A DNA stretch of 64,000 bases, taken from Limnomonas spitsbergensis (lineage: Eukaryota > Chlorophyta > Chlorophyceae > Chlamydomonadales). The translations under genes and the position numbers were made by a program. The DNA lies in contig JAYJMM010000019.1 in NCBI GenBank assembly GCA_037349105.1, positions 2,105,501 through 2,169,500 of the forward strand. Direction: 5' to 3'. Under the pieces are notes generated by a model. That model saw only the letters and a program-made list of their open reading frames with translations, made no database searches and was not told where the DNA came from. Each line of letters starts with the position of its first letter. Position 1 is the first letter of the stretch. This document shows, piece by piece, positions 1-64,000 of the stretch.

Positions 1-342
1 GATGCGCTCGTCTTGCTCATACATAGCTAAATACGTTATACGTTATACGTTAAGGGGCGGGCTTTGGCAGGTCGCACAGTTTAGGCTGACACGCGAGAAA
101 GGCCTGACACGTGCGCGTGCGGTCAGTCCAACAGGTTGCGATGTGAAAGAAAAGTGTGACCCAAGTGACCGGGTGCCTTCAAACATCCACGGGGAAACGC
201 TTGACGTAATCTCCTCTGCATTAGCACGGTCAATTTTCACAATTGGACTCAAATCGTGACATTCCTCATTGCGCTTCGACCCCGACCCCCCACTGACCCC
301 GGCCATTTGTCTCGACACCTTGAAAACCGATATTGTAGCGAT
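1..342 (+). promoter_or_regulatory. Upstream region and probable 5' UTR of the isoamylase gene
   Basis: No convincing coding sequence; the small open frames here lack homology. The probable start codon is at 343. I see no clear TATA box or other named element. The promoter and transcription start should lie here or beyond the left edge. Confidence 0.4.
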
Positions 343-473
343 ATGAAACTTTCGAAATCTGGATTGGGAAGAACAGTGCGTGGGCACGCGTCATTAGTCC
401 CTCGCTCTCCTGTCCCCCAATCATGTCAGCTCGCTTCTGTAGGGCGAGGGCCCGCATGCCTGCTGTCTAGCAG
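343..473 (+). CDS. ISA1: Isoamylase exon 1, start codon and plastid leader
   Basis: ATG at 343 is the first ATG in this frame. The 43 residues encoded are rich in Ser, Arg, Gly, Val and Pro and nearly free of acidic residues, as in chloroplast transit peptides. The exon ends phase 2 at AG|GTGCGC, exactly the phase the next exon needs. This is the weakest link in the model because leaders are not conserved; the start rests on composition, phase and the downstream acceptor. Confidence 0.62.
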
Positions 474-3400
474 GTGCGCCTCTGCCCGGTCTCATCACCT
501 GCGGTAATCGAGTGCGGATTGCAGGTCTCGGTGCTAGCTGATGAACGGGGCATCATGTCCTATCCCAACCGACATCATTATGGGTACCCGTTTACAGGGG
601 CCTTCCGAGCACCCTCCCCGACAGCATATACACCTTTGCTTGTACATCCCTTTGCAGCATCGACCGGCCCCATGGTCGCACCTCCGGAAAGCTTCTGTCC
701 ACGAGGGCTGTCGCGGTGTCCGACCCCGCACCAGTCCCGCCTGCTCCCGCGACCCCAGTCGTGAAGCCGATCGTTGTCAACCCCAACATCTGGTCGGATC
801 CATCAGGGCAGGCAGCAGCGGCGGGCATACATAAGGAGCCGCTGACAGGCAGGGCCGAGCCACTGGGAGCTACTGCAGACCCTAGCATGGTGCGTGCATG
901 GGGCATGGGGCATGGGGCGTACGGGTAAGGTGCATGGGGAATGGGGCATGCATAATGATCAGGGTGCACGGGTGCGCCCAGTCGGGCACAGAATACGAGA
1001 CCCTGTCCTTATCATTTGTATCATACCTTGATCAGGAGCTGCTGCTGGGCACGTCAGCACGTTTAGACGGAAGAGTTGCGCCACTCGGCTACTGGGAGAC
1101 TCGGCAGATCCTTGCGGACGGATCTTCCTGGTTAAAGAAAAACCTCCCCCGTAATCCAGGCCCGCTTTATACCCATCCAGCCTCCGTGTCTATAATCGTT
1201 GTATATTTCAGTGTTGTGTAGGCTGCAAAATTAAGGAGGCTGCTTAGCAGTGATTCTTTAAGCCGGCACTGAATATGACTCGTACTGAAAGTCAGCACTG
1301 AGTATGGCTCGTATTTATGTCGGCAATAAATACGACTTGTACTGAAATAGAGGGTATCGAACAATTGTTTTACTTCAACGTACGGTACTGAACCATCCTG
1401 AAAACTGCCAGATACCCAAATCCTGCGAAATCCTGGATGGGTTTTGCGCCTAAGATGCATGGTAGGGGGATTTAAGCACAGAAGAATTCCGTCCCCAAAC
1501 AAATGGAAATAGTCACTGCCTCTCAATGGCCACTGCTGGGCCGACGGCGACCAAAGTCGGCATCGTGGATCGTAGGCCACCATGTGGTTCAACTTAAGCT
1601 GAAGCTCCCAATCAATTTTTTGTAAGCTGAAGCTCCCAATTACATTTCAGCTCCTGATTAAAGTTTAGCCCCCCATTAAATTTCAGCTGAAGCTCACGAT
1701 AATTACCCGTGTCCTTTACACCTGCTTGGCTTGCTTTGCACCTGAGGGCACATCCCCTATTAAGCTGATTGAAGTGGCCTGGGGGCCATGGAGCACTAGC
1801 GGTGTTTATTTTTTCACGGCTCAGCTACATTAGTAGGCAGGTCTAAGTTTGGTCCCAAATGGGCATTTGGCGGCCGCGGGGCGGCCGGCTGGAGGTGGAC
1901 TCCTAGCCGAAAAAAGAAACACTGAGCACTAGGGAGTTGGGGAGCATTGGGGGAACAAGGTAGGGAGGGCAAAAGGGCAATGTGTGTGCAGGGTGTGTGC
2001 GTGGGTGGGAATTGTGTGTGGGTGAGAGCTGTGCTGGTGGGAACTGTGTGTGGGTAGGCACTGTGTGAAAGTGTGAACGGGGGAGTGCTAAGGCAAGGCA
2101 GGTGGCCCTAAGGCCTGGAGCATAGCGGGGTGCACATACTACAAACTTCCATAGTATGGTAGAGGGTTAAAGGAGGGAAGTGCTGCAGCACTGAAAACAC
2201 ACCATGGGACATTGTCTTTGTCATAAGTACATATGTGAGAAGCTAGATGAGTGGTGCAATGTGGACAAAAAAGCGGCAGCGTATTATACTGCAGCGCCCA
2301 ATGCAGCCCCTGACAGGAAGGAGGCCGAGCCACCTTGAGTTGTTGCTGCTAAATCCTAAACCCTCAAAACCCTAAACTAGGTGACCGAGCCACCTTAAGT
2401 TGTTGTGGTTAGTGTGAACGCATCGTACCAAAAGCCTCACGAGAGGCCCCCCTCGCACCCCCCCCCACCGAGGCTTCGCCTCGGATTCATGGTTAATGTA
2501 AGCTTTTAGCTACAACACTAGGAAGTGGGAAAGATATACAGGCTGAGGCGTAAACAATAAAGATATACGCAAGAAAGAAAGATATACACCCTGAGGCGTG
2601 GGAAGGGGAGTCCCTCCCCCCCCCCACGGGGCGCATCCCTCGCAACTGTTAAGGTTTAGATGGCCTTGGCGTGGGTGGCAGCAGGGAAAGGGCCATGTTC
2701 GGCTGCAGCACTGTGTAGCCTACCATTTAGCTTTGCGTGCAGAAAGCCGGCACCCGGGAATACCCGCTCCCCCTGCTGCTATCAGGCTGTGCCTTCCCTG
2801 CTGCTGCACTGCATGATACCCTCTCTCCCCCTGCTGCTATCAGGCTGCCGTCAATTTTGCCGTCTTCTCCTCCTCGGCAACTGCAGTCAACCTGTGCCTG
2901 TTCACGGAGGCGGACCTGCAGGTAAAGTGCACCGCGCAACAAGGGCGTACGGGCGTGCAGTACTGCAGGTAAAGTGCACCGTGCAACAAGGGCGTACGGG
3001 CGTGCAGTACTGCAGGTAAAGTGCACCATGCAACAAGGGCGTACGGGCGTGCAGTACTGCAGGTAAAGTGCACCGTGCAACAAGGGCGTACGGGCGTGCA
3101 GTACTGCAGGTAAAGTGCACCGTGCAACAAGGGCGTATGGGCGTGCAGTACTGCAGGTTAAGTGCACCGTGCAACAAGGGCGTATGGGGGGCGTGCAGTA
3201 CTGCAGGTGAAGTGCGCCGTGCAACAAGGGCGTATGGGCGTGCAGTACTGCAGGTAAATTGCACCGTGCAACAAGGGCGTACGGGCGTGCAGTACTGCAG
3301 GTAAAGTGCACCGTGCAACAAGGGCGTACGGGCGTGCAGTACTGCAGGTAAATTGCACCGTGCAACAAGGGCGTATGGGCGTGCAGTACTGCAGGTAAAT

Positions 3401-6400
3401 TGCACCGTGCAACAAGGGCGTACGGGCGTGCAGTACTGCAGGTAAATTGCACCGTGCAACAAGGGCGTACGGGCGTGCAGTACTGCAGGTAAAGTGCACC
3501 GTGCAACAAGGGCGTATGGGCGTGCAGTACTGCAGGGAAAGTGCACCGTGCACCAAGGGCGTACAGGCGTGCAGTACTGCAGGTAAAGTGCACTGTGCAA
3601 CAAGGGCGTACGGGTGTGCAGTACTGCAGGTTAAGTGCACCGTGCAACAAGGGCGTATGGGGGGCGTGCAGTACTGCAGGTAAAGTGCGCCGTGCAACAA
3701 GGGCGTACGGGCGTGCAGTACTGCAGGTAAAGTGCACCGTGCAACAAGGGCGTACGGGCGTGCAGTACTGCAGGTAAAGTGCACCGTGCAACAAGGGCGT
3801 ACGGACGTGCAGTACTGCAGGTAAATTGCACCGTGCAACAAGGGCGTATGGGCGTGCAGTACTGCAGGTAAATTGCACCGTGCAACAAGGGCGTACGGAC
3901 GTGCAGTACTGCAGGTAAATTGCACCGTGCAACAAGGGCGTATGGGGGGCGTGCAGTACGGCAGGTAAATTGCGCCGTGCAACAAGGGCGTATGGGCGTG
4001 CAGTACTGCAGGTAAATTGCACCGTGCAACAAGGGCGTATGGGCGTGCAGTGCTGCAGGTAAAGTGCACTGTGCAACAAGGGCGTTCGGACGTGCAGTAC
4101 TGCAGGTAAATTGCACCGTGCAACAAGGGCGTATGGGCGTGCAGTACTGCAGGTAAAATGCACCGTGCAACAAGGGCGTACGGGCGTGCAGTACTGCAGG
4201 TAAATTTCACAGTGCAACAAGGGCGTACGGGCGTGCAGTACTGCAGGTAAAGTGCACCGTGCAACAAGGGCGTATGGGCGTGCAGTACTGCAGGGAAAGT
4301 GCACCGTGCAACAAGGGCGTACAGGCGTGCAGTACTGCAGTGCTGGTTATAATGTATCCTGCAGCAAGGGAAATATAAAATTGAAGCATGACATCTCGCA
4401 TAACATGGTATACCTTCCACCCTGAACCCTAAACCCTGAGTTGACTGCTGGTTAAGGTTCTGTGAAAGGTTCAGTGACTAGTGCTTCAGTCCCAACAAGA
4501 ATAGCACGCGGACGCCCGTCCCCTAATTTTTTCCTTGCTGCTGATAAGATTCCCCCTTGCTTAACTGCAGGCCGGTCGTGTGACTGCTGAGATTGAGCTG
4601 GACGCACTGTTCAACAAGACTGGAGATGTGTGGCATACCCTGGTGCCGGGACTGCAGCCGGGCCTGCTGTACGGTGAGCTGATGAGAAGGGGTGGCAGCC
4701 GATCTATTTTACAGTCCGCGTTCAAAAGCCAGGGCTGTTGTACTAGATGTGTGACATACCCTGGTGCCGGGTCTGCAGCCAGGCCTGCTGTATGGTGAGC
4801 TTAAAGAAAGCCAGGGCTGTTGTACTAGATGTGTGACATACCCTGGTGCCGGGTCTGCAGCCAGGCCTGCTGTATGGTGAGCTTAAAGAAAGCCAGGGCT
4901 GTTGTACTAGATGTGTGACATACCCTGGTGCCGGGACTGCAGCCAGGCCTGCTGTATGGTGAGCTTAAAGAAAGCCAGGGCTGTTGTACAGGCAGCTTTT
5001 AAACGGTATGTTTTACTGTCAGCTTTTATAAGTCAGGGCTGTTGTACTAGATGTGTGGCATACCCTGGTGCCGGGACTACAGCCGGGTCTGCTGTACAGT
5101 GAGCTTTTAAATAGCGTTGACACCTGGCGCCCTATAGCACCATGGTGGGATTGGGTGTGGTGGCAATAGTAGCATTGAAGTAGCATTTTAATTTTAGTAG
5201 TACTTTTTAGTATTCTGATTAAATTATGAATACTGGTGCCGGCTTAAAACAATTGTTGCCCTTATTTATTTTGGAACAGCGTAGCTTTGGGGGCCTCATT
5301 CCACTAGCTCTCTTGATCTCACTTATCCTTGCTAAAGGGGGGTCTTGAAGTTTAGAGACTGGTTCCACCACAAGTCTATAAAAGTAATATATAAGATTAA
5401 AAAAAGTTACGTCCCTTATTATTCAAATATTTGGTACTTCCCCTGAGGGCCTCTTAATCAGCGGACAGTCTTTGAAGAGGCCACGTCAGACTCGCGCCTG
5501 TGGTTCAGCCGCGTCATGTATCTCCGCCACGCGCGACGATCACCTCAAGGACGCCCACCTTTCCGCATTTGCTGCGAGCGGATTGTCTCTCGTCATTGGT
5601 TGCTTCCGTCTTCGACCTGGTTGGCAAATATCCAAACTACTTGCCGGCTGCCGTGTAAAACAGCCTGGTAAGCCACGCGCCTGGTGACATATAGAGATGC
5701 AACGTGCTTTGGTGGCATACGTCGTGAAATTAGGATCCCTATTACTACGTGGGCGTCAAATTCCTGGGAGGGTTTAAGCGACGCTCCCAGGCGAGGGTTT
5801 AAGCGACGCTCCCAGGCGAGGGTTTAAGCGACGCTCCCAGGCGAGGGTTTAAGCGACGCTCCCAGGCGAGGGTTTAAGCGACGCTCCCAGGCGAGGGTTT
5901 AAGCAACGCTCCCAGGCGAGGGTTTAAGCCACGCACCCATGCGAGGGTTTAAGCAACGCTCCCAGGCAAGGGTTTAAGCAACGCTCCCAGGCGAGGGTTT
6001 AAGCGACGCTCCCAGGCGAGGGTTTAAGCGACGCTCCAAGGCGAGGGTTTAAGCGACGCTCCAAGGCGAGGGTTTAAGCGACGCTCCCAGGCGAGGGTTT
6101 AAGCGACGCTCCCAGGCGAGGGTTTAAGCAACGCTCCCAGGCGAGGGTTTAAGCGACGCTCCCAGGCGAGGGTTTAAGCGACGCTCCCAGGCGAGGGTTT
6201 AAGCAACGCTCCCAGGCGAGGGTTTAAGCGACGCTCCCAGGCGAGGGTTTAAGCGACGCTCCCGCGGTGGAACGAGACTCTTTATAAAGGTTGTTTAAAT
6301 ATAAACAGGTTGTCCAGCAAATCCTAATCGTTGGGTTTCTTATCGCCCCCGTTATCCAAACATATGTCTTCGTTCGTGCTGTACATTTACCGCCTTATTT

Positions 6401-9400
6401 TTTCAAAACGATTTAAAGCTTCCCAATCGATTGGGAGATATTACATGATTTAATCTCATGTGCATCCGCTTGTTTTGCGCCCACATGATGTCTGCCAGCT
6501 GTCGCACGTCCCAGTATTGCATTTGGCACCTGCGAGGGTGATGTGATGGACTGCTGCCTGACATGGTCTGTCAAACAAGTGCCTCCATAACAGATTGTAG
6601 TCTTTCACTCTGCCGGATTGCTTGCCAGCTGGCAATAAGGTCCTGCTGTAATCTCCTGCCGTCCATACGGTATCTTGAAGCTTCGTATCGAAAGTAAAGG
6701 CATTACCTTAGACTTATTTGGCCTCCGCGAACGAGAAATAAATATACTTGTGCGCCAAAGCGCGCTTCACTGGAGAACCTTTTTGACGTCCTAAAAGTGG
6801 CGTTTTCCGCTTAAGTTGGGGTTTCCACAAGGCGCGACGGCGAAACAGCATTCATTGCGTGCGGAGGCAAAAAGCGTCTACGGTATACGATAAATGTATT
6901 GCTCTTATATTTTATTCGCAGGCTGTCATGTATTCAATGCTGAGGTTGCCTTAAAATCACCGCCTTCTCTTCATCCACAAAGGTGTTTTGCCAACTATAG
7001 CGTGTCAGCTTACAAACCTTCGACTCTTCTCAACTGTAGGCTCGCACGCATCCAGTGCTGAGATGCGTGCCTGAATCACTGCCCTCTTCTATCCGAGGGA
7101 AAACTTTTAGCACAATCTCTTTCAAAGCTTTTTTAGGGGTTATAAAAATTATCTTAGGTAGGTCCAAGCAGTAGGCGTGCATCCTTGAGAAAGGGAGTTC
7201 GCCTGCTTGGTATCCCCCTGAGCGAAATCTCGTAAAATCTTATAATAGGAAGGGCCCACAAATCTGTGTTTGCCGGCTTTGACATATCGTGTTTTGCTCA
7301 TCTTGTCTGCAGGTTATCGCCTGTTCGGTCCGCATCAGGCAGACAGTGTTGCAGCTCTGGGGCACCGCCACAACGAGGTGGGTGGGTCAGCTGGCATTCA
7401 CACTCACAGGTTGAAGGGTGAATATAATGATGTGGGTCCTGGATTTTTGTTGGGGGTAAACATATCAATCAGGTTTTGGGGGTTGAGGTGGGTGGGACAA
7501 CTGGCATTCACACTTATAGGTTGAAGGGTGAATATAATGTTGGGTATATATAATGAGGGTTTGTATAATGAGGTTGGGTCCTGGATAGACGAGGTTGGAT
7601 TGCGTATAGTGTTAAGCTCTGACACCGCAAAAGAGACTCAAATGTAGCCCTAAGACGGTCTGTTGTAAGTAAATAGATAAATAGGTAATTATATGGATAT
7701 AGATCTCGATATATAGATAAATAGATATGCAAACAACTGCATGGATAGAAGAAGCCGCCCATTTAGGCGGTACGCCCTGAAGCCCCGTGTCCTGTGTGCA
7801 ATGCTTGCGTGTGTGGCGTGTGCATATGCTTGTCTGTGTGTGTCCTGTGCGCCATGCTTGTGTGTGTATGTTTTGTGTGTGTGTGTGTGTGTGTGTGCGT
7901 GTGCCATGTTTGTGTGCGTGTGTTCTGTGTGACATGCTTACCAGTATGTGCGTTTTTGTGTGTGTGTTTTGCATTTGTGTGAGTTTGTGTGCCTGTGCCA
8001 TGTTTGTGTGTGTGTGTTCTGTGTGACAATCTTACCGGTATGTGCGTTTGGTATGTGCCTGTGCCATGTTTGTGTGAGTGTGTGTGCATGTTCGCATTTG
8101 TTTGCTCCCCAGAGTCCTGAACTCTCTGTGTGGGTCCTGAGTGTGTGCATGTGTGCGTCTGTTTCACAGAAGCATGTAGTCCTCGATCCCTACGCAAAGA
8201 GCATCATCGGCCGTAGGCAGTACGGCCAGCTGGGCGCCGACCTGCAGTACGGCACGGAGGGCGTAGTGGGGGCCTCGCGCACCTGGCAGCAGGTGTGAAC
8301 AGAGATCCAAACACTGGACATTTTTTGTTGTTCAACTGATGCTTGTAAATTAAAACCTGCCTTGGATCTAGCCTAACTTGGATACAAATTCGGATCTGGC
8401 CTGACTGAGATCTGAAGCCGAATCTGGAATGAGTCAGATCTGGACTCAGATCTGGCTATAATCAGGTCTGAATTATGTTTTGGCATGGATGCAAAATGTG
8501 TGGAGGCAGGTGGGAGATGTGTGGAGGCAGGTGGGAGATGTGTGGAGGCAGGTGGGAGATGTTTGGATGCAGGTGGGAGATCTATGGCAGGGTGGGCATA
8601 GCTACAGGGACACAGTGCTGTACCGAAGTTTTGAATTGCCTTCCCTTGGATATAATTTAATTGTTCATTTAAAGCTCCTCTCGGTCCCAAATATGGACAA
8701 GAAACTAAAGATTTCCGACTGAAACTGGCGTTGACATGGCGATAATTCGTAATGAATGATCATGAATCCCTCACCCCTAAACAACGCCAATTATGAGGGA
8801 AGGCTATTCGAATCTTCTTAATTACAGGGCGTGCTGCTCGATGTCATGGGCCCACTTTGCCGGTCCGTCCCCACTTGAGAGCATGGTAGCACAATCCGGC
8901 TGAACCTGTGCCGTATCGAGCCGTATCGTGGCACTTTGGTAGCACAATCCGGCTGAACCTGTGCTATATTGCGCCGTATCATGCCGTATCGTGCTACCAT
9001 GCTAGAGAGGGACACTACTGCTCCCCAAGTCATCAATCCGCGTCTTTGGACGCCCTTTTATTTAATGGTCAGCTGTGCCAATTGCGCTTCAATGGAGAGG
9101 GGTGGATGTAGTTTGGCAGCGGCCCGGTTTGCCAGTCGTTCTCCACTTGCAGAGGGAGGTGGGCTGCCCATGGGCGTCCGCTTGCTTTGCCAGGCATACT
9201 CCAATTGGGAGGAGCACTGCTACCTAGCCATGGACCACATTGCCAGCTATGCTCTTATCGTAGGGGGTTGCTGCCCATGTGCATCCGCTTGCGTTGCCAG
9301 TCAAAGTGTAATTGAAAGGGGCATCGCTCTGCGTCAGACTGGCAGTGACGCCCTTTGCTCGTCGTCGGCCACCCCACGGCTGCCGCTGGCCCAAGTGGGA

Positions 9401-55500: not shown

Positions 55501-58500
55501 CATGACCTCACACAATGGAATCGGCTCGACATCTTAGCGCACCTCATGACCTCACACAATGGAATCGGCTCGACATCTTAGCGCACCTCATGACCTCACA
55601 CAATGGAATCGGCTCGACATCTTAGCGCACCTCATGACCTCACACAATGGAATCGGCTCGACATCTTAGCGCACCTCATGACCTCACTCAATGGAATCGG
55701 CTCGACATCTTAGCGCACCTCATGACCTCACACAATGGAATACCATGCCTCACATATTACACCACTTAATATCACAACTCACATGTCACATATTACACAT
55801 CACACCAGTGCTTTCTTACTGCATGCTTACCAGGGATAGCCCCTGCCCGGTGCATGCTTACTGCATGCTTACCAGGGATAGCCCCTGCCTGGTGCATGCT
55901 TGGTGCATGCTTACCAGGGATTGCTCCTGCCTGGTGCATGCTTACCAGGGATAGCCCCTGCCTGGTGCATGCCTGGTGCATGCTTACCAGGGATAACCCC
56001 TGCCTGGTTCATGCCTGGTGCATGCTTACCAGGGATAGCCCCTGCCTGGTGCATGCTTACTGCATGCTTACCAGGGATAGCCCCTGCCCGGTGCATGCTT
56101 ACCAGGGATTGCTCCTGCCTGGTGCATGCCTGGTGCATGCTTACCAGGGATTGCTCCTGCCTGGTGCATGCCTACTGCATGCTTGGTGCATGCTTACCAG
56201 GGATTGCTCCTGCCTGGTGCATGCCTGGTGCATGATTACCAGGGATTGCTCCTGCCTGGTGCATGCTTGGTGCATGCTTACCAGGGATAGCCCCTGCCTG
56301 GTGCATGCTTACCAGGGATTGCTCCTGCCTGGTGCATGCTTACCAGGGATTGCTCCTGCCTGGTGCATGCTTACCAGGGATTGCTCCTGCCTGGTGCATG
56401 CTTACCAGGGATTGCTCCTGCCTGGTGCATGCCTACCAGGGATAGCCCCTGCCTGGTGCATGCTTACCAGGGATAGCCCCTGCCCGGTGCATGTTTACCA
56501 GGGATAGCCCCTGCCTGGTGCATGCCTACCAGGGATAGCCCCTGCCCGGTGCACGCTTGGTGCATGCTTACCAGGGATAGCCCCTGCCCGGTGCATGCAT
56601 ACTGCATGCTTACCAGGGATAGCCCCTGCCCGGTGCATGCTTACTACATGCTTACCAGGGCTAGCCCCTGCCCGGTGCATGCTTACTGCATGCTTACCAG
56701 GGATAGCCCCTGCCCGGTGCATGCTTACTGCATGCTTACCAGGGATAACCCCTGCCTGGTTCATGCCTGGTGCATGCTTACCAGGGAAAGCCCCTGCCCG
56801 GTGCATGCTTACCAGGGATTGCCCCTGCCTAGTGCATGCTAACCAGGGATTGCCCCTGCCTGATGCATGCTTACCAGGGATTGCTCCTGCCTGGTGCATG
56901 CTTACCAGGGCTAGCCCCTGCCCGGTGCATGCTTACTGCATGTTTACCAGGGATAGCCCCTGCCCGGTGCATGCTTACTGCATGCTTACCAGGGATAGCC
57001 CCTGCCCGGTGCATGCTTACTGCATGCTTATCAGGGATAGCCCCTGCCCGGTGCATGCTTACTGCATGCTTACCAGGGATAGCCCCTGCCTGGTGCATGC
57101 TCACCAGGGCTAGCCCCTGCCCGGTGCATGCTTACTGCATGTTTACCAGGGATAGCCCCTGCCCGGTGCATGCTTACTGCATGCTTACCAGGGATAGCCC
57201 CTGCCCGGTGCATGCTTACTGCATGCTTATCAGGGATAGCCCCTGCCCGGTGCATGCTTACTGCATGCTTACCAGGGATAGCCCCTGCCTGGTGCATGCT
57301 TACCAGGGCTAGCCCCTCCCCGGTGCATGCTTACTGCATGTTTACCAGGGATAGCCCCTGCCCGGTGCATGCTTACTGCATGCTTACCAGGGATAGCCCC
57401 TGCCTGGTGCATGCTTACTGCATGCTTACCAGGGATAGACCCTGCCCGGTGCATGCTTACCAGGGATTGCTCCTGCCTGGTGCATGCCTACCAGGGATAG
57501 ACCCTGCCCGGTGCATGCTTACTGCATGCTTACCAGGGATAACCCCTGCCTGGTTCATGCCTGGTGCATGCTTACCAGGGATAGCCCCTGCCTGGTTCAT
57601 GGTTGGTGCATGCTTATGGCCACATGTGTCTGCGTGGGACATGCTTGCCATTGCACCCTACCTTCTGAAACGCATTATCACAGTCAAAAAAGCGTGCGGC
57701 AACAGGACTGGTACCTGCACCCTGACCATGCGTGCTTGCGTTGTACATGCCTGTCATATGCCCATATGCGCTTGTGTTGAACATACCTGCACCCTGACCA
57801 TGCGTGCTTGCGTTGTACATGCCTGTCATATGCCCATATGCGCTTGTATTGAACATACCTGCACCCTGACCATGCGTGATTGCGTTGTACATGCCTGTCA
57901 TGTGCCCATATGCGCTTGTGTTGAACGTGCCTGCTAGTAGACCAGCACGCATGAATTGAGCTTGCGTTGTATCCCCTGGTTGTACCCCCTGGTTGTACCT
58001 TCTGGTTGTACCCCCTGGTTGTACCCCCTGGTTGTGCAGCCCGTCATATGCCCAATTGCCCATATGTCCTTGCGATAGAAATGCCTGCAATTGACCCAGA
58101 CCCATGATGGACATGCCAGCCACAGCGTCTAGGACATGTCTGCACTTGACCCTACCTTGTGGAATGCTATGCCGTAATCGAAAGGCTCAATGTAGTCACC
58201 CAGGAAACTCAGTTCACCTGCGTTCGGTACAAACAATGGGGCTTGAAGTTCACCTTTGGGCCGCCACTAACCCTAAGCTGGTTTTTCATGAATACAGTAT
58301 TTAAAAGCTGGGTTAGCGGTGGAGAAGCTAGCTTGAACCCAAACAGCATTTGGTGCACAGATGGGTTACAAGTCCCCTCAGGTTCATCAGCAGAGCCAGC
58401 AACAATGGATACCGATCAAGCAGGCCCTCTATGGCTGGGGAAAGCCTTTCCCGGAAAGGCCCCCCCCGCCCGCCTCAGCCTCCTCCTGCCGACGAAGTAA

Positions 58501-61500
58501 AGACGCAGAGCCCGCGCAAACTTCTCACCTTTATTTGTCGCCCTCCTTCTCCCGGCCCCAGGGCGGCAACTCTTTACGTTAAAAAAGGGCGGCAACTCTA
58601 GCGCAAATACAAGACTCAACCCTTTATTCCAACTTGGCCAGTCATGTGGATGACACCAGCACCACCATGGCTGGCCAAGTTGGAGCAACGTTTCAGGGTT
58701 ATGCCTGGTTCATCTGTGGATGTATAAGTTAGAGTGTCCCTCATGCCTCTTGCAAAAAAAAAGTGAGACGCACGTCGTAGAGTTTCCCCTCAAACAGAGT
58801 TTCCCCTCAAACACCCAATCACTCCCATTGATGGTCAAGCATCGTTCCAGTACTGAAGGATAGCTTGTGAAACGCGTAGGCCATGCAATACTTGCCATCC
58901 CCTTCAGAAGCTTGCCAATATGCCCTATCACCCACATTGAGCGTCCATCACACCCTTCCAGTACTGCAGGATGGCCTTGTCAAACACGTAGGCCTGAAGC
59001 GTCTTGGCCACAATCATATCCTTGACCTCAAGGAACGTCTGGTTAGGGTGGGCACAGCAGAGGTAGGACACGGGGTTAGTAGCAGGCACCCCAAACAGAG
59101 GGTATGGGGTTTAGTACTGAAGTGGTGGGCACGGCATGCTGGCCACAAAGGCCATCTATGTGAGGAAGACACATCAGACAGAAGGTACCACAAAGGTCTT
59201 CTATATGAGGAAGACGCATCCGACAGAGGGTACAGGGTAAAGTGTAGAGCAGGGCCGGCTTGACTATTCGGTCACAATCAGGTAATGGGCCTCGACCGAC
59301 ATCTAGTTATGGCAGGCACAGCAGACAGAGGATGCAGGTTTAGTAGCAGGCACATCAGACTGAGGGTACCGGGTGAAGTGGTGGGCACGGCATGCAGAAA
59401 GCTTCCGGGCCACAATCAGTCCTTGACCTCAACCAATGTATGGCAGGCACATTAGACAGGGTTCAGTGTCGGGTACATTAGGCAGAGGGTGTAGGGTTAA
59501 GTTGCAGACATGTCAGGCACACAGCTTCTGGGCCACAATCAGCTCCTCAACCTCAACCGACGTATGGCGGGCACATTAGACAGGGTTCAGTGTCAGGTAC
59601 ATTAGGCAGAGGGTGTAGGTTAAGTTGCAGGCATGTCAGGCACACAGCTTCTGGGCCACATTCAGCTCCTCAACCTCAACCGACGTATGGCGGGCACATT
59701 AGACAGGGTTCAGTGTCAGGTACATTAGGCAGAGGGTGTAGGGTTAAGTTGCAGACATGTCAGGCACACAGCTTCTTGGCCACAATCAGCTCCTCAACCT
59801 CAACCGACGTATGGCGGGCACATTAGACAGGGTTCAGTGTCAGGTACATTAGGCAGAGGGTGTAGGGTTAAGTTGCAGGCATGTCAGGCACACAGCTTCT
59901 GGGCCACATTCAGCTCCTCAACCTCAACCGACGTATGGCGGGCACATTAGACAGGGTTCAGTGTCAGGTACATTAGGCAGAGGGTGTAGGGTTAAGTTGC
60001 AGGCATGTCAGGCACACAGCTTCTTGGCCACAATCAGCTCCTCAACCTCAACCGACGTATGGCGGGCACATAAGACAGGGTTCAGTGTCAGGTACATTAG
60101 GCAGAGGGTGTAGGGTTAAGTTGCAGGCATGTCAGGCACACAGCTTCTTGGCCACAATCAGCTCCTCAACCTCAACCGACGTATGGCGGGCACATTAGAC
60201 AGGGTTCAGTGTCAGGTACATTAGGCAGAGGGTGTAGGGTTAAGTTGCAGGCATGTCAGGCACACAGCTTCTGGGCCACAATCAGCTCCTCAACCTCAAC
60301 CGACGTATGGCGGGCACATTAGACAGGGTTCAGTGTCGGGTACATTAGGCAGAGGGTGTAGGGTTAAGTTGCAGGCATGTCAGGCACACAGCTTCTTGGC
60401 TTCGATGGAGCCTGCCCGCATAAATTGCTTTGGGCAATGGAGAGCAGGCCAGAACACCAGTTGGTCACACCTGCTGCTGTAGCGCACCTAAGACCCGTTC
60501 CATGTCAGGGCCGATGCCTGCAAGTGGTTGCTTTGCCTGAGGCCGTCTGGTCACATCAATGGCTTTTAACTTTGGAGAATAGGCCATAACAAGTGCTGCT
60601 GTAGCGCACCTGAGACCTGTTCCATGTCAGGGCCGATGCCTGCAAGTGGTTGCTTTGCCCGAGGCCGTCCAGTCACATCAATGGCTTTTAACTTGGGAGA
60701 ATAGGCCATAACAAGTGCTGCTGTAGCGCACCTGAGACCTGTTCCATGTCAGGGCCGATGCCTGCAAGTGGTCGTACAGGGGTACTGGTAGTACCCCCTG
60801 GTTGTAACCCCTGGTCACACATGCTGCTGTAGCGCACCTGAGACCCGTTCCATGTCAGGGCGGTGGCCTGCAAGTGGTCGTTCTGCCCGAGGCGCTCTAC
60901 ATACACACCTGGGGGTAACGGAATTATGTTGTTAAATGTTGATGGGTTTGTAATCTACGGTGTACAGGAGTGGCTTTAGGGTTGTTAAATCTTTATAATG
61001 GTCGTTCCAAGGCGATCCACAAGCACCCTTGGGGCTCATTAAGGGCAAGGGAGTGGTGTCATGTTTCTAATAAACTCATTGCCGTAGATTTGATTTGCCT
61101 CCCCTTGATTTGCCTCCCCTAGGGCATCAAACAGTGATTTGCCTCCCTTAGGGCATCAAACAGTGATTTGCCTCCCCTAGGGCATCAAACAGTGATTTGC
61201 CTCCCCTAGGGCATCAAACAGTGATTTGCCTCCCCTAGGGCATCAAACAGTGATTTGCCTCCCCTAGGGCATCAAACAGTGATTTGCCTCCCCTAGGGCA
61301 TCAAACAGTGATTTGCCTCCCCTAGGGCATCAAACAGTGATTTGCCTCCCCTAGGGCATCAAACAGTGATTTGCCTCCCCTAGGGCATCAAACAGTGATT
61401 TGCCTCCCCTAGGGCATCAAACAGTGATTTGCCTCCCCTAGGGCATCAAACAGTGATTTGCCTCCCCTAGGGCATCAAACAGTGATTTGCCTCCCCTAGG

Positions 61501-62659
61501 GCATCAAACAGTGATTTGCCTCCCCTAGGGCATCAAACAGTGATTTGCCTCCCCTAGGGCATCAAACAGTGATTTGCCTCCCCTAGGGCATCAAACAGTG
61601 ATTTCAAACAGTGATTTCTTTTCATGCTGCCTTCTGGGCAAACGTCGACAAAACAATCTTAGGTTCTGGCTGGATATTGGCGTCGAAAATCGCCCATATC
61701 TAGTCAGATGCTCCGTAACAATCTCTCTGCCAAATACGCAAAGAGCCCCCCAGCCCTGCCCCCAAGCAACGCCTTTGTGACCTGCCAACACAGTTCTTTA
61801 AAACCCACCGCTCAAACCCACTAGCAAGACTTCAGGGTTCAGGAACGGGGGTTAACATAGTCATATACCCATGACCCCGTAAAATTCATGGTCACGAGAC
61901 GCCCCATTATCATTTATAAAACCTCTCGTCCACTTCAATAATCCTCATGCAGGGTTTAATGCTAGAGGGTGAACATATACCCTGACCCCGATGACAAGTT
62001 GTTGTTACAAAGTTAACGCAGCCACCCACAGCCCTTTGCGAAAGAGCCAGGCAGAGCGAGCCGAGGGGGGAACTGGCGATAAGTACCAAAACCTTTACCA
62101 CGCAACACAGGGGAGGGGACATTTCAAAGCAGCACCAACACGTTGATGTATACCCTGACCCCGCTGACAAGTGTTCCCGGATCAGGGTGTTTGTGACGGG
62201 CGGATGACAACCTTCATCTACTCTTCTTTTAAGCTACCGTAGATTTGCTTTGCCCGCCCTCATAATTTAAGTAGTTTGGGGTTGAGGGTACTGTTTACCC
62301 ATCGTCAATGCCAGTTCCCAGTAAAAAATTATGAGTTTTGGTCAATAATTTTCCCGACGGAAGGAAAATTAAAACTAAGGTAGCGAGGGCTTCTCTCTCT
62401 TTGCCAAAGATGTCAGAGCCTTATTAGCCACAAGGGCATAGCGGCATATACCCACCCATGGTAACGGAGCAGATGAGGCCTTACCTGCCCTGCCACATTC
62501 ACACCCACACGCCCCACGCGGGGCAAAGCATGATCCATTTCGGAAACTCTCACCATGCGCAGCGATCTTAAGGCCACGGAGGTCGTTAAGAGAGGAGATC
62601 CCGGTTGTGGAGGCTGCGGTCGTGAGTGCAGCAGCCAGGTTGGCGGTGTAGGTCGCAAT
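48687..62659 (-). CDS. Ionotropic glutamate receptor-like channel, 3' ten exons (5' part outside window)
   Basis: Ligand-gated cation channel subunit of the iGluR/GLR superfamily in a cell membrane (family inference). Exons on the - strand, 5' to 3': 62659-62554, 60908-60838, 59038-58936, 58217-58156, 54738-54685, 53108-53010, 51849-51627, 50850-50545, 50126-49939, 49589-48687; 2115 nt, 704 residues, all phases join. Counting from the first residue seen: ATYTANLAAALT (2-13) is the M3 'SYTANLAAFLT' gate motif; 36-165 is the S2 ligand-binding half, with a likely ligand-contacting D79 in AYVFDK and a cysteine pair C94/C151 where iGluRs have the S2 disulfide; 166 to about 190 (SGLWIVLGSAIGFGLLSG) is M4; the rest is a long Ser/Gly/Pro-rich cytosolic tail with no domain I recognise. 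Convergent with the isoamylase gene. Confidence 0.87.
49745..49842 (+). repeat. 13-bp repeat in GLR intron
   Basis: Eight copies of GTTGTAGCAAAGT between GLR exons i and j. Confidence 0.93.
49939..50126 (-). CDS. GLR exon i (basic tail segment)
   Basis: Reads (V)SPQHPNLPSTAEPIARRRR ... MRAYTKMLAGK. The Arg-rich run resembles a juxtamembrane or nuclear-type basic patch; no domain recognised. Phase 1 in, 0 out at AAA|GTGAGT. Confidence 0.75.
50210..50535 (+). repeat. 20-22 bp array before the exon h donor (GLR)
   Basis: About 15 imperfect units of GGCAGGCCCGCAGTCCCCCT and CAGACCCACAATCCCCTTGT. It abuts the donor of GLR exon h. Confidence 0.88.
50545..50850 (-). CDS. GLR exon h (cytosolic tail)
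   Basis: 102 codons, begins (G)NSCGTGEDVFQSMQHGSGR and ends GGFGAG. Rich in Ser, Gly, Glu and Met with no recognised domain. Joined by phase to exons g and i. An echo of its first 47 bases lies at 51282-51331 on the other side of a 26-bp array. Confidence 0.8.
50960..51340 (+). repeat. 26-bp array between GLR exon h and its echo
   Basis: About 12 copies of CATGGACTAGACATGGACGA plus GCGCCG (or GCGCTG) at 50975-51284. The end at 51282-51331 is a copy of the exon h start (CATGGACTGGAAGACATCCT plus CCCAGGTGCCGCAGCTGTTG on the + strand), so the array appears to grow out of exon sequence CATGGACTGGA. Confidence 0.93.
51370..51445 (+). repeat. Second, older echo of GLR exon h
   Basis: AAGGATTGGAAGACATCACC ... 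TTGGTGCTGCAGCCGTTCTC is a further decayed copy of the same exon start. Confidence 0.75.
51627..51849 (-). CDS. GLR exon g (M4 and proximal tail)
   Basis: Opens with ISGLWIVLGSAIGFGLLSGS, a single hydrophobic span fitting M4, then a basic CGIYRHHVRG stop-transfer and an acidic, Gly-rich stretch (VEDDEFVDGG...EEGEEEAGGG). Phase 0 in, 1 out (G|GTAGGG). Confidence 0.9.
51850..52060 (+). repeat. GGTGGGTGGGTAGG microsatellite
   Basis: Imperfect GGTGGGTAGG/GGTGACTGGG repeats directly upstream (in transcription) of the GLR exon g acceptor; pyrimidine-rich on the transcribed strand. Confidence 0.88.
52275..52830 (+). repeat. 19-bp tandem array (GLR intron)
   Basis: About 29 copies of CATTGTACATCCGCACTTG with CGC/CAC and TTG/TAG variants. 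Open frames on both strands are artefacts. Confidence 0.96.
52880..53009 (-). repeat. Echo of the GLR exon f donor
   Basis: On the - strand CAGCCTGCATATCAATCCGG plus TGAGTGCGGCAGTACAGAAG (about 52928-52885) copies the exon f end and intron start (CCTGCATGTCAATCAG|GTGAGTGCTGCAGTACAGAAG). Confidence 0.9.
53010..53108 (-). CDS. GLR exon f (end of S2)
   Basis: Reads ASSLLDNLNKQFLASGDSCM then VPLIQAESLHVNQ, the 'G.L..L..KW....C' end of S2 with the second disulfide cysteine (C151). Phase 0 both ends, acceptor CCTCCCAG, donor CAG|GTGAGT. Confidence 0.88.
53140..53530 (-). repeat. Two echoes of the GLR exon f start
   Basis: Copies of the exon f 5' end (CAGGCTTCATCGCTACTGGA plus TAA(T/C)...AAGCAGTTT) occur at about 53226-53165 and 53494-53440. 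Each runs from its GCTTC-CAG acceptor to AAACTCACC/AAGCACTTTGTC before entering intron. Units are about 120-270 bp. Confidence 0.9.
53870..54600 (+). repeat. 68-bp array with telomere-like end (GLR intron)
   Basis: About 11 copies containing CCGTAGCCATGGTCCGCAAC, ATGCAGCCTAGTGTGGCGGA and CTAGTTTAGGGTGTAGGGTT; the first two units are longer and carry GGTTTAGGGTTTAGGG runs. Confidence 0.95.
54685..54738 (-). CDS. GLR exon e (S2)
   Basis: Reads DMPTNLLDEFNFGVLTAQ, matching 'KDSPL...FN.AIL.L.ESG'. I use the acceptor CCACTGCAG because it keeps phase 0. A second possible acceptor at 54774 would need an extra, unseen exon. Donor CAG|GTAAGG. Confidence 0.85.
54830..55280 (-). repeat. Four decayed echoes of the GLR exon e start
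   Basis: Real exon e on the + strand shows AAAGTTGAACTCATCAAGCA plus GGTTGGTAGGCATGTCCTGC. Copies at about 54855, 54965, 55090 and 55200 keep AAATTTGAAACTCATCATGC, TGTCCTGCGAT and a following GATG-CATCAT, spaced about 110-120 bp. Confidence 0.85.
55290..55740 (+). repeat. 44-bp tandem array (GLR intron)
   Basis: Ten copies of AATGGAATCGGCTCGACATC plus TTAGCGCACCTCATGACCTCACAC. Confidence 0.96.
55810..57610 (+). repeat. 31/42-bp composite array (GLR intron)
   Basis: Over 50 units built from TTACCAGGGATAGCCCCTGC (or GATTGCTCC) plus one to three GGTGCATGC/TACTGCATGC modules. A block with TTACTGCATGTTTACCAGGG (56934) is repeated about 198 bp later (57132), and again at 57333. Ala/Pro/Cys-rich open frames are artefacts. 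Confidence 0.95.
57650..57700 (-). repeat. Echo of the GLR exon d 3' end
   Basis: On the - strand TTTGACTGTGATAATGCGTT plus TCAGAAGGTAGGG parallels exon d's TTCGATTACGGCATAGCATT plus CCACAAGGTAGGG, followed by similar intron (AGCATGTCC/ACATGTCC). Too diverged to be used as the exon. Confidence 0.75.
57700..57940 (+). repeat. 72-bp repeat, three copies
   Basis: Three copies containing CTGCACCCTGACCATGCGTG, CTTGCGTTGTACATGCCTGT and CATATGCCCATATGCGCTTG. Confidence 0.93.
57965..58035 (+). repeat. 13-bp repeat
   Basis: Five copies of GTTGTACCCCCTG (one with TTCTG) between GLR exons d and e. Confidence 0.9.
58156..58217 (-). CDS. GLR exon d (S2)
   Basis: Reads (C)ELSFLGDYIEPFDYGIAFH then K, matching 'GE.F...GFGI.. 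.K' of iGluRs. Acceptor CGAACGCAG, donor AAG|GTAGGG; phase 1 in, 0 out. Confidence 0.88.
58300..58930 (+). other. GLR intron c-d, low-copy
   Basis: No array. Contains an inverted pair around CCAACTTGGCCAG (58629) and CTGGCCAAGTTGG (58672), a 13-base fold-back. Open frames here lack homology. Confidence 0.5.
58936..59038 (-). CDS. GLR exon c (S2 ligand-binding helix)
   Basis: Reads TFLEVKDMIVAKTLQAYVFD then KAILQYWKGVMDAQ(C). 'AYVFDKAILQY' aligns with the iGluR 'AF.WDSAVLEFE' segment, whose Asp/Glu contacts the ligand amino group; the split Cys is the first S2 disulfide cysteine. Donor T|GTGGGT, phase 1. Confidence 0.88.
59090..60410 (-). repeat. 124-bp array built from GLR exon c
   Basis: About 7 regular plus 2-3 diverged units. 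On the + strand each has CTTCTGGGCCACAATCAGCT, CCTCAACCTCAACCGACGTA and TGGCGGGCACATTAGACAGG, which mirrors exon c with its acceptor: GTCTTGGCCACAATCATATC, CTTGACCTCAAGGAACGTCT, GGTTAGGGTGGGCACAGCAG. The unit is therefore a decayed exon c start plus preceding intron. Confidence 0.88.
60470..60837 (-). repeat. Three echoes of the GLR exon b 3' end
   Basis: AGCGCACCTGAGACCTGTTC plus CATGTCAGGGCCGATGCCTG (+ strand) occurs at 60480, 60602 and 60726 before the real exon at 60838, spaced about 122 bp, each with its donor (CAG|GTGCGC on the - strand). Confidence 0.95.
60838..60908 (-). CDS. GLR exon b (S2)
   Basis: Reads (G)VYVERLGQNDHLQATALTW then NGSQ, fitting the variable S2 segment after the 'DL.G..I' helix. 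Phase 1 in, phase 0 out, matching both neighbours. Donor CAG|GTGCGC. Three copies of its 3' end follow in the intron. Confidence 0.8.
61097..61602 (+). repeat. 29-bp tandem array (GLR intron)
   Basis: About 17 nearly identical copies of GTGATTTGCCTCCCCTAGGG plus CATCAAACA; the most homogeneous array of the window, hence probably recent. Confidence 0.97.
61603..62553 (+). other. GLR intron a-b, rest
   Basis: Low-copy sequence plus the dispersed repeat at 61960-62110 (GTTAACGCAGCCACCCACAG ... GCCAGGCAGAGCGAGCCGAG). ACCCTGACCCCG(A/C)TGACAAGT is repeated at 61980 and 62155. No gene. Confidence 0.5.
62554..62659 (-). CDS. GLR exon a (end of M3 and linker)
   Basis: Reads IATYTANLAAALTTAASTTG then ISSLNDLRGLKIAAH(G). 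The TYTANLAA motif is diagnostic of iGluR M3. Acceptor CTTGTGCAG, donor G|GTGAGA, phase 0 in and 1 out. A broken duplicate lies about 1.04 kb upstream in transcription. Confidence 0.92.
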
Positions 62660-62697
62660 CTGCACAAGGTGTAGGCAAATATTGGTATATGTATATG

Positions 62698-63557
62698 TAG
62701 GCATCGGCAATATTATATAATATTATATAGTATATAAAGTATATTATATAATATATATTCGAATTCGGCATATCATATATACTTTATATAAAGTCGCGAA
62801 AATCCCGAATGTCGCGACTGAAAACGTGGAAATACGGCATTTCAGCTACTGTCGGCTACTTGTGAGACAAGCGCATGCGTTCTCGTCCGATTCTATACTC
62901 CAATAATACTCGTGTTACCTGGAATGGCCCCTAAGAAAGTGGAACGATCTATCCTTCTCGACAATGGCAAGCAACTGCACTTAGTAACCGAGTGGGAGTA
63001 GTGGGAGCCTGAGGCTTTGTATGCCGAGCTGAATAAGATTAAGCGAATTTGGAACAATCGGTCCAGCGGAACTGGTCAGCATGGGGGCAGACGTACACCA
63101 GTAGCCGCTCACGCCTAGGCATCGCGCGGGCTGAGAAGCTGATTTATGTCAAGGCGGACCGTGACGACGGCGAGGTCAAGGAGGTTCAGAACGAGGAGGT
63201 TTTTCTGAACTATTACTCCGACTGACTTGATAACTTCGGAACAGTCATGCTATGAGACTCAAATGTCTTAGTGATCATGTAGAGGTACTTTAACTGAACT
63301 TCTGGACCAGACCTGCCCCATTTTGCGAACCCGTGATCCGCGTCAAACAAATACAGTGTTTTAATGTTTTGAGGACATAGATTTCTTAGATGGGACGAGT
63401 TAGCTGCAGATTCTGAATGCCCTGATTAAGCTGAATCCAGACCACTATTTTTTTTTAACTTTGGCCCACTTTTTTCTGACTTTACATACTATATATATGA
63501 TATATATATTATATACTTTACATTGGCGGGGCATGTAAAGTATATTGCCGATGCCTA
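62698..63557 (+). mobile_element. hAT-like transposon relic with 16-bp inverted ends
   Basis: 860 bp between perfect inverted repeats TAGGCATCGGCAATAT (62698-62713) and ATATTGCCGATGCCTA (63542-63557), flanked by TGTATATG / GGTATATG (7 of 8 match). AT-rich subterminal arms. Inside are transposase-like remnants: 62924-63118 (MAPKKVERSILLDNGKQLHL, stop at codon 26) and, in another frame, about 63092-63225 (SRSRLGIARAEKLIYVKADR ... VFLNYYSD stop), which resembles the C-terminal dimerisation part of hAT transposases. Dead copy. Confidence 0.65.
62924..63118 (+). pseudogene. Broken reading frame inside the hAT-like element
   Basis: Starts ATG GCC CCT AAG AAA; TAG at 62999-63001, then open to TAG at 63116. 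Protein-like, basic, no domain I recognise. Probably an N-terminal or middle piece of the element's lost transposase. Confidence 0.4.
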
Positions 63558-63599
63558 GGTATATGCGATACCAGTGCAGTTGAAGGGGGAATCCCGGCC

Positions 63600-63697
63600 A
63601 TGCGATAACAACCAAGGATGACATTCCGGTGGCGGAGGCTGTGGTCGTGAGTGCAGCAGCCAGGTCAGCTGTTTAGGTTGGCGGTGTAGGTGGCAAT
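63600..63697 (-). pseudogene. Broken duplicate of GLR exon a
   Basis: After CTTGTGCAG the - strand reads IATYTANL, then a 13-base insertion (AAACAGCTGACCT) shifts the frame and brings a TGA. The rest still aligns to exon a (GGCTGCTGCACTCACGACCA). Lies 5' of the real exon in transcription, with the hAT-like element between them. Confidence 0.88.
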
Positions 63698-63699
63698 CT

Positions 63700-64000
63700 G
63701 CACAAGGTGTAAGAGGTGTAGGTGCAGTGCTGGGAAAGTTTGCCGTAATTGTACGGTCCAGTGGGCATCTTGTTTGATGCAAAGGAACAGGTGCCAGAAA
63801 ACAGGTTTGAACAAAAGGTAAAATAGGACAAGCGGAAAATTAGCGACCCCCCCCTGGGCAAGCCAACACAACCACAGAACAGCAGCGTGGGAATGAACCC
63901 CATAAACCTCACTCCCCACCATAGGGTCAGGGTTCAAGGTTAAACCTCATGCATCCCACTTCCCACCATAGGGTTTAGGGTTAAGGTTAAACCTCAGGAC
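63700..64000 (-). other. GLR intron running off the window
   Basis: No exon seen. Contains the dispersed repeat shared with 14755-14830 and two copies of CATCCCACTTCCCACCATAG-type sequence with telomere-like GGGTTTAGGG (63915-63995). Confidence 0.5.

What the first reader, a model, noticed from the sequence alone, without database searches (positions are those of the whole stretch)
1..64000. Exon-edge echoes: splice-junction segments of most exons are duplicated into the adjacent introns of both genes
At roughly 18 of 26 isoamylase exons and 7 of 10 GLR exons, 20-125 bases of exon next to a splice site, with the AG or GT site, recur one to eight times in the neighbouring intron. Copies lie in the same orientation at near-regular spacing, and often the farther copy is the more decayed. 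Acceptor copies lie upstream and donor copies downstream. Some carry stops (4746, 12240) or frameshifts (63670). This points to a continuing local duplication process anchored at exon-intron borders that enlarges introns. I know of no standard name for it. Alternatives: ordinary tandem duplication seen everywhere but recognisable only where exon sequence gives a reference, or assembly error.
Basis: partly seen in the sequence, partly recalled or inferred. Interest (0 to 1): 0.88.

Follow-up and report, generated by a model that had tools for sequence, protein, structure and literature searches.

The report
Exon-edge copies inside snow-alga introns
Pieces of coding sequence at exon ends really are copied into the neighbouring introns of two genes of a green alga, but they look like ordinary local DNA duplications, common in this genome, that happened to cross a splice site and stay recognisable because the exon is preserved.

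Summary
Same-strand copies of exon ends lie in the adjacent intron for 16 of 24 isoamylase and 5 of 7 receptor exons, and for 0 of 536 non-adjacent exon-intron pairs. Predicted exons elsewhere in the genome show it too: 32 of 200 sides direct, 1 inverted.

An exon-anchored process is not established. With arrays counted, junctions are duplicated no more often than other positions (16/58 against 687/1740; 19/174 against 648/4184), and 1 of 33 copied intervals ends within 3 nt of a splice site. With arrays collapsed to two units, junctions show a 1.7-fold excess in both data sets. Exon constraint explains 1.2-fold of it in simulation; permanence of the exon copy could explain the rest, but the excess does not fall in the most similar copies, so a mild bias stays open.

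The copies behave as neutral debris: differences concentrate at third codon positions, echo splice sites are neither kept nor purged, offsets ignore frame. The genome is probably Limnomonas spitsbergensis. Known kind of process; unusually dense record.

The parts
2844..47371 (+). Isoamylase gene, 24 exons used (a 25th, 791-889, dropped as doubtful)
   Evidence: profile spliced alignment; Pfam alpha-amylase and CBM48
51760..62659 (-). Glutamate-receptor-like channel gene, 7 exons used (both gene ends not determined; probably runs past 64000)
2916..4340 (+). 30-copy array of a 47-bp unit that begins 6 nt inside exon 2; its consensus unit carries the donor sequence of exon 2
   Evidence: exon 2 ends at 2921
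4745..5105 (+). Donor echoes of exon 3 (4 copies of 57 nt: 50 exonic + 7 intronic)
12204..12324 (+). Donor echo of exon 6 with in-frame stop at 12245
12352..12412 (+). Acceptor echo of exon 7, 97%
13866..13953 (+). Donor echo of exon 9, 94%
15439..15753 (+). Acceptor echoes of exon 11 (three)
16850..16889 (+). Acceptor echo of exon 12, 98%
17142..17324 (+). Donor-side echoes of exon 12 at 17142-17190 (no junction) and 17285-17324
24765..25364 (+). Donor echoes of exon 13 (first copy directly abuts its source, offset 154)
27542..27740 (+). Acceptor echoes of exon 15
27952..28124 (+). Acceptor echoes of exon 16, 96%, period 97
31572..31609 (+). Copy of exon 18 positions 10-47, 1.4 kb upstream, without the junction
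33220..33251 (+). Acceptor echo of exon 19
33510..34039 (+). G-rich array starting 13 nt inside exon 19 and running across its donor into the intron
34363..34641 (+). Acceptor echoes of exon 20 within a repeat array
34960..35365 (+). Acceptor echoes of exon 21, best 99%
35740..35810 (+). Donor echo of exon 21
36363..36440 (+). Acceptor echo of exon 22
44830..44888 (+). Copy of exon 23 interior (no junction)
45174..45801 (+). Donor echoes of exon 23 (first abuts its source, offset 115)
46020..46055 (+). Copy of exon 24 interior (no junction), 94%
46271..46810 (+). Donor echoes of exon 24
63617..63711 (-). GLR exon 1 (TM3) acceptor echo with a 13-nt insertion
60462..60775 (-). GLR exon 2 donor echoes (3)
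59270..60310 (-). GLR exon 3 acceptor echoes (9 rows, mostly the 124-bp array)
58814..58882 (-). GLR exon 3 donor echo
55099..55153 (-). GLR exon 5 acceptor echo (weak, 75%)
53173..53552 (-). GLR exon 6 acceptor echoes (2)
52879..52926 (-). GLR exon 6 donor echo

Best explanation
Local, same-orientation duplications of tens to about 150 bases arise in many parts of the non-exonic DNA of this alga, some of them growing into minisatellites. A duplication lying wholly inside an exon would alter the protein and is lost. One that crosses a splice site can be tolerated: splicing keeps using the exon-proximal site, and the extra copy of exon edge plus site is left in a longer intron. That copy then decays neutrally, while the exon stays fixed by selection. 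Exon edges are therefore where such duplications remain recognisable longest; nothing need target the border. Shown here: locality, orientation, some direct head-to-tail cases, decay without sign of constraint on the copies, and no junction excess over introns as they stand. Inferred: which splice site is used (homology models only), the tolerance argument, survival of the exon copy as the cause of the excess over array-collapsed background, and the molecular origin (small tandem duplication in break repair, slippage or unequal exchange).
For: Duplications fill these introns: 28,828 of 42,203 isoamylase intron bases have a local direct copy. Junction-centred 60-mers: 16 of 58 duplicated against 687 of 1740 intron positions, ratio 0.70 (95% 0.40-1.11), and 0.51 (0.19-0.99) at 90% identity. 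In 16 arbitrarily placed stretches, 19 of 174 predicted junctions against 648 of 4184 positions; outside arrays, positions <500, 500-1500 and >1500 bp from predicted exons are duplicated at 0.047, 0.033 and 0.044. Intron-intron pairs of isoamylase show no preference for the 250 bp next to exons (0.287 against 0.238, 239 of 400 rotations as large). Ends are scattered: 1 of 33 copied intervals ends within 3 nt of a junction. Direct exceeds inverted: mean coverage 0.27 against 0.02 in 20 stretches, 32 against 1 of 200 exon sides. Some copies abut their source head to tail (exons 13, 16, 23). Decay: exon-copy differences 0.116, 0.093 and 0.202 at codon positions 1, 2, 3 (66 copies); with one copy per side 0.101, 0.078, 0.169, p 0.001, the roughly twofold step expected if only the copy drifts at positions 1-2 and both drift at position 3. 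Splice dinucleotide intact in 31 of 43 isoamylase copies, expected 31.6; offsets modulo 3: 12, 21, 11.
Against: Outside arrays, junctions are duplicated about twice as often as intron positions: 13/41 against 86/541, p 0.016; at 90% identity 7/41 against 25/541, p 0.005; at 95% 4/41 against 12/541, p 0.021. Genome sample: 16/166 against 85/1798 (near exons), p 0.015; 85% identity p 0.033; 92% 4/166 against 27/1798, p 0.33. With arrays collapsed the ratio is 1.73 (0.95-2.90) in the window and 1.72 (1.37-2.22) in the sample; paired difference +0.137 (0.029 to 0.257). The ratio does not fall with identity (window 2.06, 2.00, 2.27 at 85, 90, 95%; sample 2.32 with 1.36-2.91, then 1.85 and 2.03 with intervals reaching 0), although survival bias should fade in young copies. 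Simulated exon constraint gives only 1.17-1.21. With arrays counted, sample junctions are slightly above positions <500 bp from exons (0.109 against 0.086, p 0.33). At 92% identity outside arrays, duplicates are denser near exons (27/1798 against 4/940 and 6/822). With echo pairs included, isoamylase non-array duplicates lean towards exons (0.492 against 0.274, 51 of 400 rotations as large). The intronic part of copies differs by 0.141, less than the 0.2 that free drift of both sequences predicts. Five of 33 copies hold only interior exon sequence, which plain tandem duplication across the junction does not explain without later loss.
Confidence: 0.75

Rival explanations
1. An exon-edge-anchored duplication process: something about exon-intron borders (chromatin, R-loops, splicing-linked breakage) makes duplication start there.
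For: Twofold excess of duplicated junctions outside arrays and 1.7-fold over array-collapsed background in two data sets, not shrinking with identity; at 92% identity outside arrays, duplicates in the genome sample are denser within 500 bp of predicted exons (27/1798 against 10/1762).
Against: Ratio 0.70 against introns as they stand in the window, and 0.109 against 0.155 for all positions of the sample; copied intervals do not end at splice sites; isoamylase intron-intron duplicates not nearer exons; intervals for the most similar copies are wide and include 1.
Confidence: 0.14
2. Intron birth: the introns themselves arose by tandem duplication of exon segments (Rogers model) or by mobile introner-type elements.
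For: Tandem duplication of exonic DNA is seen, and the Rogers model is an established route (PMC4974935, passages).
Against: 0 of 29 introns start like the next exon and 0 of 29 end like the previous exon; 0 of 536 non-adjacent exon-intron pairs share exon sequence.
Confidence: 0.03
3. The echoes are working parts: alternative or mutually exclusive exons, or decoy splice sites kept by selection.
For: 31 of 43 copies still have the splice dinucleotide; 52 of 66 copies have an open exonic part; in the genome sample a few predicted exons are matched over their whole length (for example L028 8246-8320, L025 3521-3595).
Against: 31 of 43 is the neutral expectation; no frame preference in offsets (12, 21, 11); 8 copies with stops and 6 with frameshifts of 66; no copy listed for the two window genes holds a whole exon; the third-position excess is what exon constraint alone gives.
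Confidence: 0.03
4. Assembly error: stuttered or misjoined reads wrote the same exon edge several times.
For: Long repeat arrays are hard to assemble; k-mer size estimate 233 Mb against a 260 Mb assembly.
Against: Copies mostly differ from their source by several to about 30% and carry indels; echoes recur in 14 of 18 other stretches on several contigs; the matching published assembly used PacBio reads with 32.9 kb L50. Copy numbers of long uniform arrays may still be wrong.
Confidence: 0.02
5. Copies came through RNA: spliced transcript fragments reverse-transcribed and inserted.
For: Copies are in the same orientation as the exon.
Against: 28 of 33 isoamylase copies carry intron sequence next to the junction; 1 of 29 exon-exon joins gave a hit spanning the join, at 53236-53177, a place that one search lists as an echo of GLR exon 6 with intron sequence, so I judge it spurious.
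Confidence: 0.02

Closest known systems
Small tandem duplications formed at double-strand breaks (CST/Pol alpha-primase fill-in followed by end joining; PMC8355091, passages read)
   Same: Direct orientation, short units, local, genome expanding; a few copies here abut head to tail.
   Different: The passages speak of short (<100 bp) insertions as tandem duplications; here many copies are separated from their source by 20-550 bp and some sides have up to nine rows. The enzymes are untested here.
[quoted passage not shown] 2011 as described in PMC4974935, passages read)
   Same: Tandem duplication of gene sequence, some of it exonic, in an intron-exon setting.
   Different: There a new intron is made; here an existing intron grows, and the end signatures of a new intron are absent (0 of 29 introns for each).
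Minisatellite expansion in introns
   Same: Arrays in these introns start inside an exon or have units that include a splice site (exons 2, 19; GLR exon 3).
   Different: Many echoes are low-copy and diverged rather than arrays.
Exon-segment (internal gene) duplication
   Same: Coding sequence is duplicated next to itself.
   Different: In the two window genes parts of exons are copied, not whole exons, and the copies fall outside the coding sequence and decay; some predicted exons elsewhere are matched over their whole length.

Membership tests
[quoted passage not shown]
   0 of 29 introns
[quoted passage not shown]
   0 of 29 introns
Introner-type elements | Similar sequence fills introns of different genes or positions | tested here: not met
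   0 of 536 non-adjacent exon-intron pairs share exon-edge sequence; an intron-wide comparison between genes was not done
Processed (RNA-mediated) copies | Copies contain spliced exon-exon joins | tested here: not met
   1 of 29 joins hit, judged spurious
Duplicated alternative exons | Whole exon with both splice sites and coding constraint | tested here: not met
   for the two window genes: no listed copy holds a whole exon; offsets ignore frame (isoamylase only). Some predicted exons elsewhere are matched whole, not examined further
Small local tandem duplication | Copies in direct orientation and close by | tested here: met
   32 direct against 1 inverted of 200 sides; 0 of 536 non-adjacent pairs
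Small local tandem duplication | Head-to-tail adjacency at birth | tested here: inconclusive
   exons 13, 16, 23 abut; many others are 20-550 bp apart
Small local tandem duplication | Dependence on CST/Pol alpha, end joining or polymerase theta | not testable with these tools
   needs mutants
   about 0.7 with arrays as they stand, about 1.7 with arrays collapsed
   1 of 33 within 3 nt

The most novel reading that the evidence does not exclude
Exon edges are mild true hotspots (about 1.5-fold after exon constraint is allowed for, perhaps more for young copies) for local duplication in this alga, for example through breaks tied to transcription or splicing, so that introns grow preferentially from their ends.
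Probability: 0.15. Interest if true: 0.75.

Novelty: new member of a known kind. Interest (0 to 1): 0.35.

Why it matters
Exon echoes give introns a fossil record: one copy is held by selection, so the other dates a duplication and shows that introns here grow in large part by local duplication. They also place many genuine-looking decoy splice sites next to real exons, so this alga could test how splicing picks the exon-proximal site (exon definition). They do not by themselves show a new duplication mechanism.

Tried and rejected
Telomere-like patches as a break-repair mark. (CCCTAAA)2-type patches are over-represented in the window (20 outside arrays against 0-1 for six permuted motifs), and some touch echoes, but echo ends lie near them no more than by chance (3 of 33, null mean 2.3), and patch density does not significantly follow duplication density over 19 stretches (rho 0.30, p 0.22). 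Not used as part of the mechanism.

A gradient of duplications towards exons. Suggested (non-array coverage 0.38-0.59 within 300 bp, 0.16-0.17 beyond 500), not significant by rotation and absent for intron-intron pairs; flat in the genome sample for all copies but not at 92% identity (0.015, 0.004, 0.007).

Junction enrichment outside arrays. Real as a count, but excluding arrays removes a common fate of intronic duplications; with arrays included it goes. Reported both ways. An earlier count gave 15 of 46 junctions spanned against 1048 of 1500 intron positions, 222 of 665 outside large arrays.

GLR by Pfam or PDB alone: Lig_chan 22.9 bits, below its cut-off of 30.8, no PDB hit. A first padded homologue search gave nothing, probably because I placed the region wrongly; a second gave six proteins. 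The short exons that the models put in the receptor tail were dropped.

Rfam (gathering) and tRNA scans of the window: nothing.

Literature. The listings and abstract starts showed no paper describing splice-junction copies in introns; that is a statement about these searches only.

Odds. On rechecking I lowered the best explanation from 0.80 to 0.75 and raised the exon-anchored rival to 0.14 and the novel case to 0.15, because the junction excess does not shrink with identity and the >=92% copies of the sample lie nearer exons.
Full report
WHAT WAS LOOKED AT. The window is G000:C19:2105501-2169500 of a 260,226,709-base assembly in 124 contigs. Size and contig number match the published assembly of the Arctic snow alga Limnomonas spitsbergensis (260,248,090 bp, 124 contigs, GC 54.15%; PMC11228838: abstract, results part 1, assembly section and passages seen); my 20 stretches average 54.0% GC. 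The identity is inferred from these figures and not proved. The paper reports PacBio reads with 32.9 kb L50 and a mean annotated intron of 788 bp; the parts that I saw do not mention splice-junction copies.

GENE MODELS. Isoamylase homologues were found (top hit Chlamydomonas eustigma, 63% identity over 70% of the query). A profile of 15 of them aligned with splicing gave 25 exons of 55-168 bases with introns of 201-8220 bases. Exon 1 was dropped as doubtful; exons 4, 14 and 15 are less sure. For the receptor gene on the minus strand a search gave six proteins, four at E <= 1e-3; two models agree on exons 1-5 and nearly on the TM4 exon, exon 6 was taken from the six-protein model, and one acceptor was set by hand. 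Seven exons were kept.

Exon ends recur in the neighbouring intron, same strand, at 21 of 46 isoamylase exon sides (16 of 24 exons) and 7 of 14 receptor sides (5 of 7 exons). Not one of 506 + 30 non-adjacent exon-intron pairs matches, so chance and dispersed repeats are not the source. In the isoamylase gene the copies hold 13-62 exonic bases and lie 70-635 bases away, with one at 1.46 kb; 28 of 33 include intron sequence across the junction and 5 do not. Donor copies lie downstream and acceptor copies upstream, but that follows from the definition: a copy that is not part of the exon must be in the intron.

IS IT GENERAL? I trained a small exon predictor on the two genes. On isoamylase at score 23, with the codon table held out by halves but the splice-site tables and intron background not held out, it found 11 of 20 internal exons exactly, with 1 prediction off the exons. 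In 18 of the 20 arbitrarily placed stretches (L021 and L023, repeat-filled, left out) it gave 100 exons at that score, against 28 in shuffled sequence of the same stretches, the shuffled set not being filtered for arrays or long ORFs; 25 of the 100 have an echo, 32 of 200 sides direct and 1 of 200 inverted. Echoes at any score >= 18 were listed in 14 of the 18 stretches. Some predicted exons are matched over their whole length (for example L028 8246-8320), unlike in the window. So the phenomenon is not confined to this window, and the window is rich in it.

IS IT ANCHORED AT EXON EDGES? Four tests. (1) One-sided matched windows: 60-base queries centred on a junction or on a random position, searched to one side (400 bases in the window, 500 in the sample). 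Window: junctions 16 of 58, intron positions 687 of 1740, ratio 0.70 (0.40-1.11), lower still at high identity (0.39, 0.09-0.88, at 95%). Sample, with L020 and L026 (transposon ORFs) also left out: 19 of 174 against 648 of 4184, but 166 of 1938 for positions within 500 bases of a predicted exon (0.109 against 0.086, p 0.33). (2) The same with every array reduced to two units, so that each array counts about once: 1.73 (0.95-2.90) in the window and 1.72 (1.37-2.22) against near positions in the sample, staying near 2 at higher identity with wide intervals; leaving arrays out gives about 2. (3) Distance: outside arrays, duplication in the sample is flat with distance for all copies (0.047, 0.033, 0.044) but not at 92% identity (0.015, 0.004, 0.007); intron-intron pairs in isoamylase do not favour the 250 bases beside exons. 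(4) Ends: 1 of 33 copied intervals ends within 3 bases of a splice site. Tests 1 and 4 speak against anchoring, test 3 mostly so; test 2 leaves a modest excess. Simulated exon constraint makes a junction pair 1.17-1.21 times as detectable. In addition the exonic copy cannot be lost by deletion or overwriting whereas either copy of an intronic pair can, which by argument allows up to twofold; that should fade in young copies, and the data are too few to show whether it does. I therefore do not need a special process, but cannot rule out a bias.

HOW THE COPIES EVOLVE. Exon-copy differences are 90/775, 72/776 and 155/766 at codon positions 1, 2 and 3, and 278/1971 in the intronic part (66 copies); with one copy per side 35/345, 27/346, 58/343 and 111/936 (p 0.001 for unevenness over codon positions). 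If only the copy drifts at positions 1-2 and both sequences drift at position 3, one expects a step of about two, as seen. The intronic part should match position 3 but is lower (0.141 against 0.202), perhaps because bases near the working splice site are themselves constrained; this I did not test. The splice dinucleotide survives in 31 of 43 isoamylase copies, expected 31.6 from flanking identity; offsets modulo 3 are 12, 21, 11. Six copies have frameshifts and eight have stops, of 66. The copies look like neutral debris.

MECHANISM. Shown: local direct duplications pervade these introns (28,828 of 42,203 isoamylase intron bases have a local direct copy), they are same-strand (direct 0.27, inverted 0.02 mean coverage in 20 stretches, which vary widely), some copies abut their source, and arrays can start inside an exon and run across the donor (exons 2 and 19). 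Inferred: a duplication crossing a splice site is tolerated because the exon-proximal site goes on being used, leaving the spare copy in a longer intron. The likely origin is break repair giving small tandem duplications (PMC8355091, passages), replication slippage or unequal exchange; I have no evidence to choose between them. Intron birth by exon duplication is not what is seen (0 of 29 for both signatures; model as described in PMC4974935, passages).

WHAT IT IS WORTH. The kind of process is known; the density of the record and its use as a clock and as a source of decoy splice sites are the interesting parts. The decisive test is a count of very recent duplications over the annotated genome.

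Noticed in passing
window 4419-4439, 15035-15054, 17216-17232, 17325-17354, 24753-24766, 26648-26663, 27153-27175, 47167-47181, 53870-54553 and others: Short telomere-like patches, (CCCTAAA)n or its complement, 52 in the window and 20 outside arrays, against 0-1 for six permuted motifs; some touch exon echoes but not more than chance.
   Followed up: partly
window 36989-44200: A 7.2-kb array of a 10-bp unit (TGTTGTCTGC, about 722 copies) inside one isoamylase intron.
   Followed up: no
window 1833-1924: A roughly 92-base element with at least 43 further matches, 75-90% identical, on many contigs of the same genome; no Rfam match at gathering score and no tRNA call in the window.
   Followed up: no
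window 16996-17044, 24623-24650, 33029-33066, 44957-45015, 46133-46168 (sources): Five copies hold only interior exon sequence without the junction, which a plain tandem duplication across the splice site does not explain directly.
   Followed up: partly
L020, L026, L021, L022: Stretches with transposon-like ORFs or repeats (a 3117-residue ORF in L026); L020 and L026 have little local direct duplication.
   Followed up: no
L023: A whole 10-kb stretch is covered by tandem arrays.
   Followed up: no
L028 8246-8320, L025 3521-3595, L027 1057-1129, L011 1129-1203 (coordinates on the predicted exon's strand): Predicted exons matched over their whole length by a neighbouring direct copy; could be whole-exon duplications or false exon predictions in repeats.
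   Followed up: no
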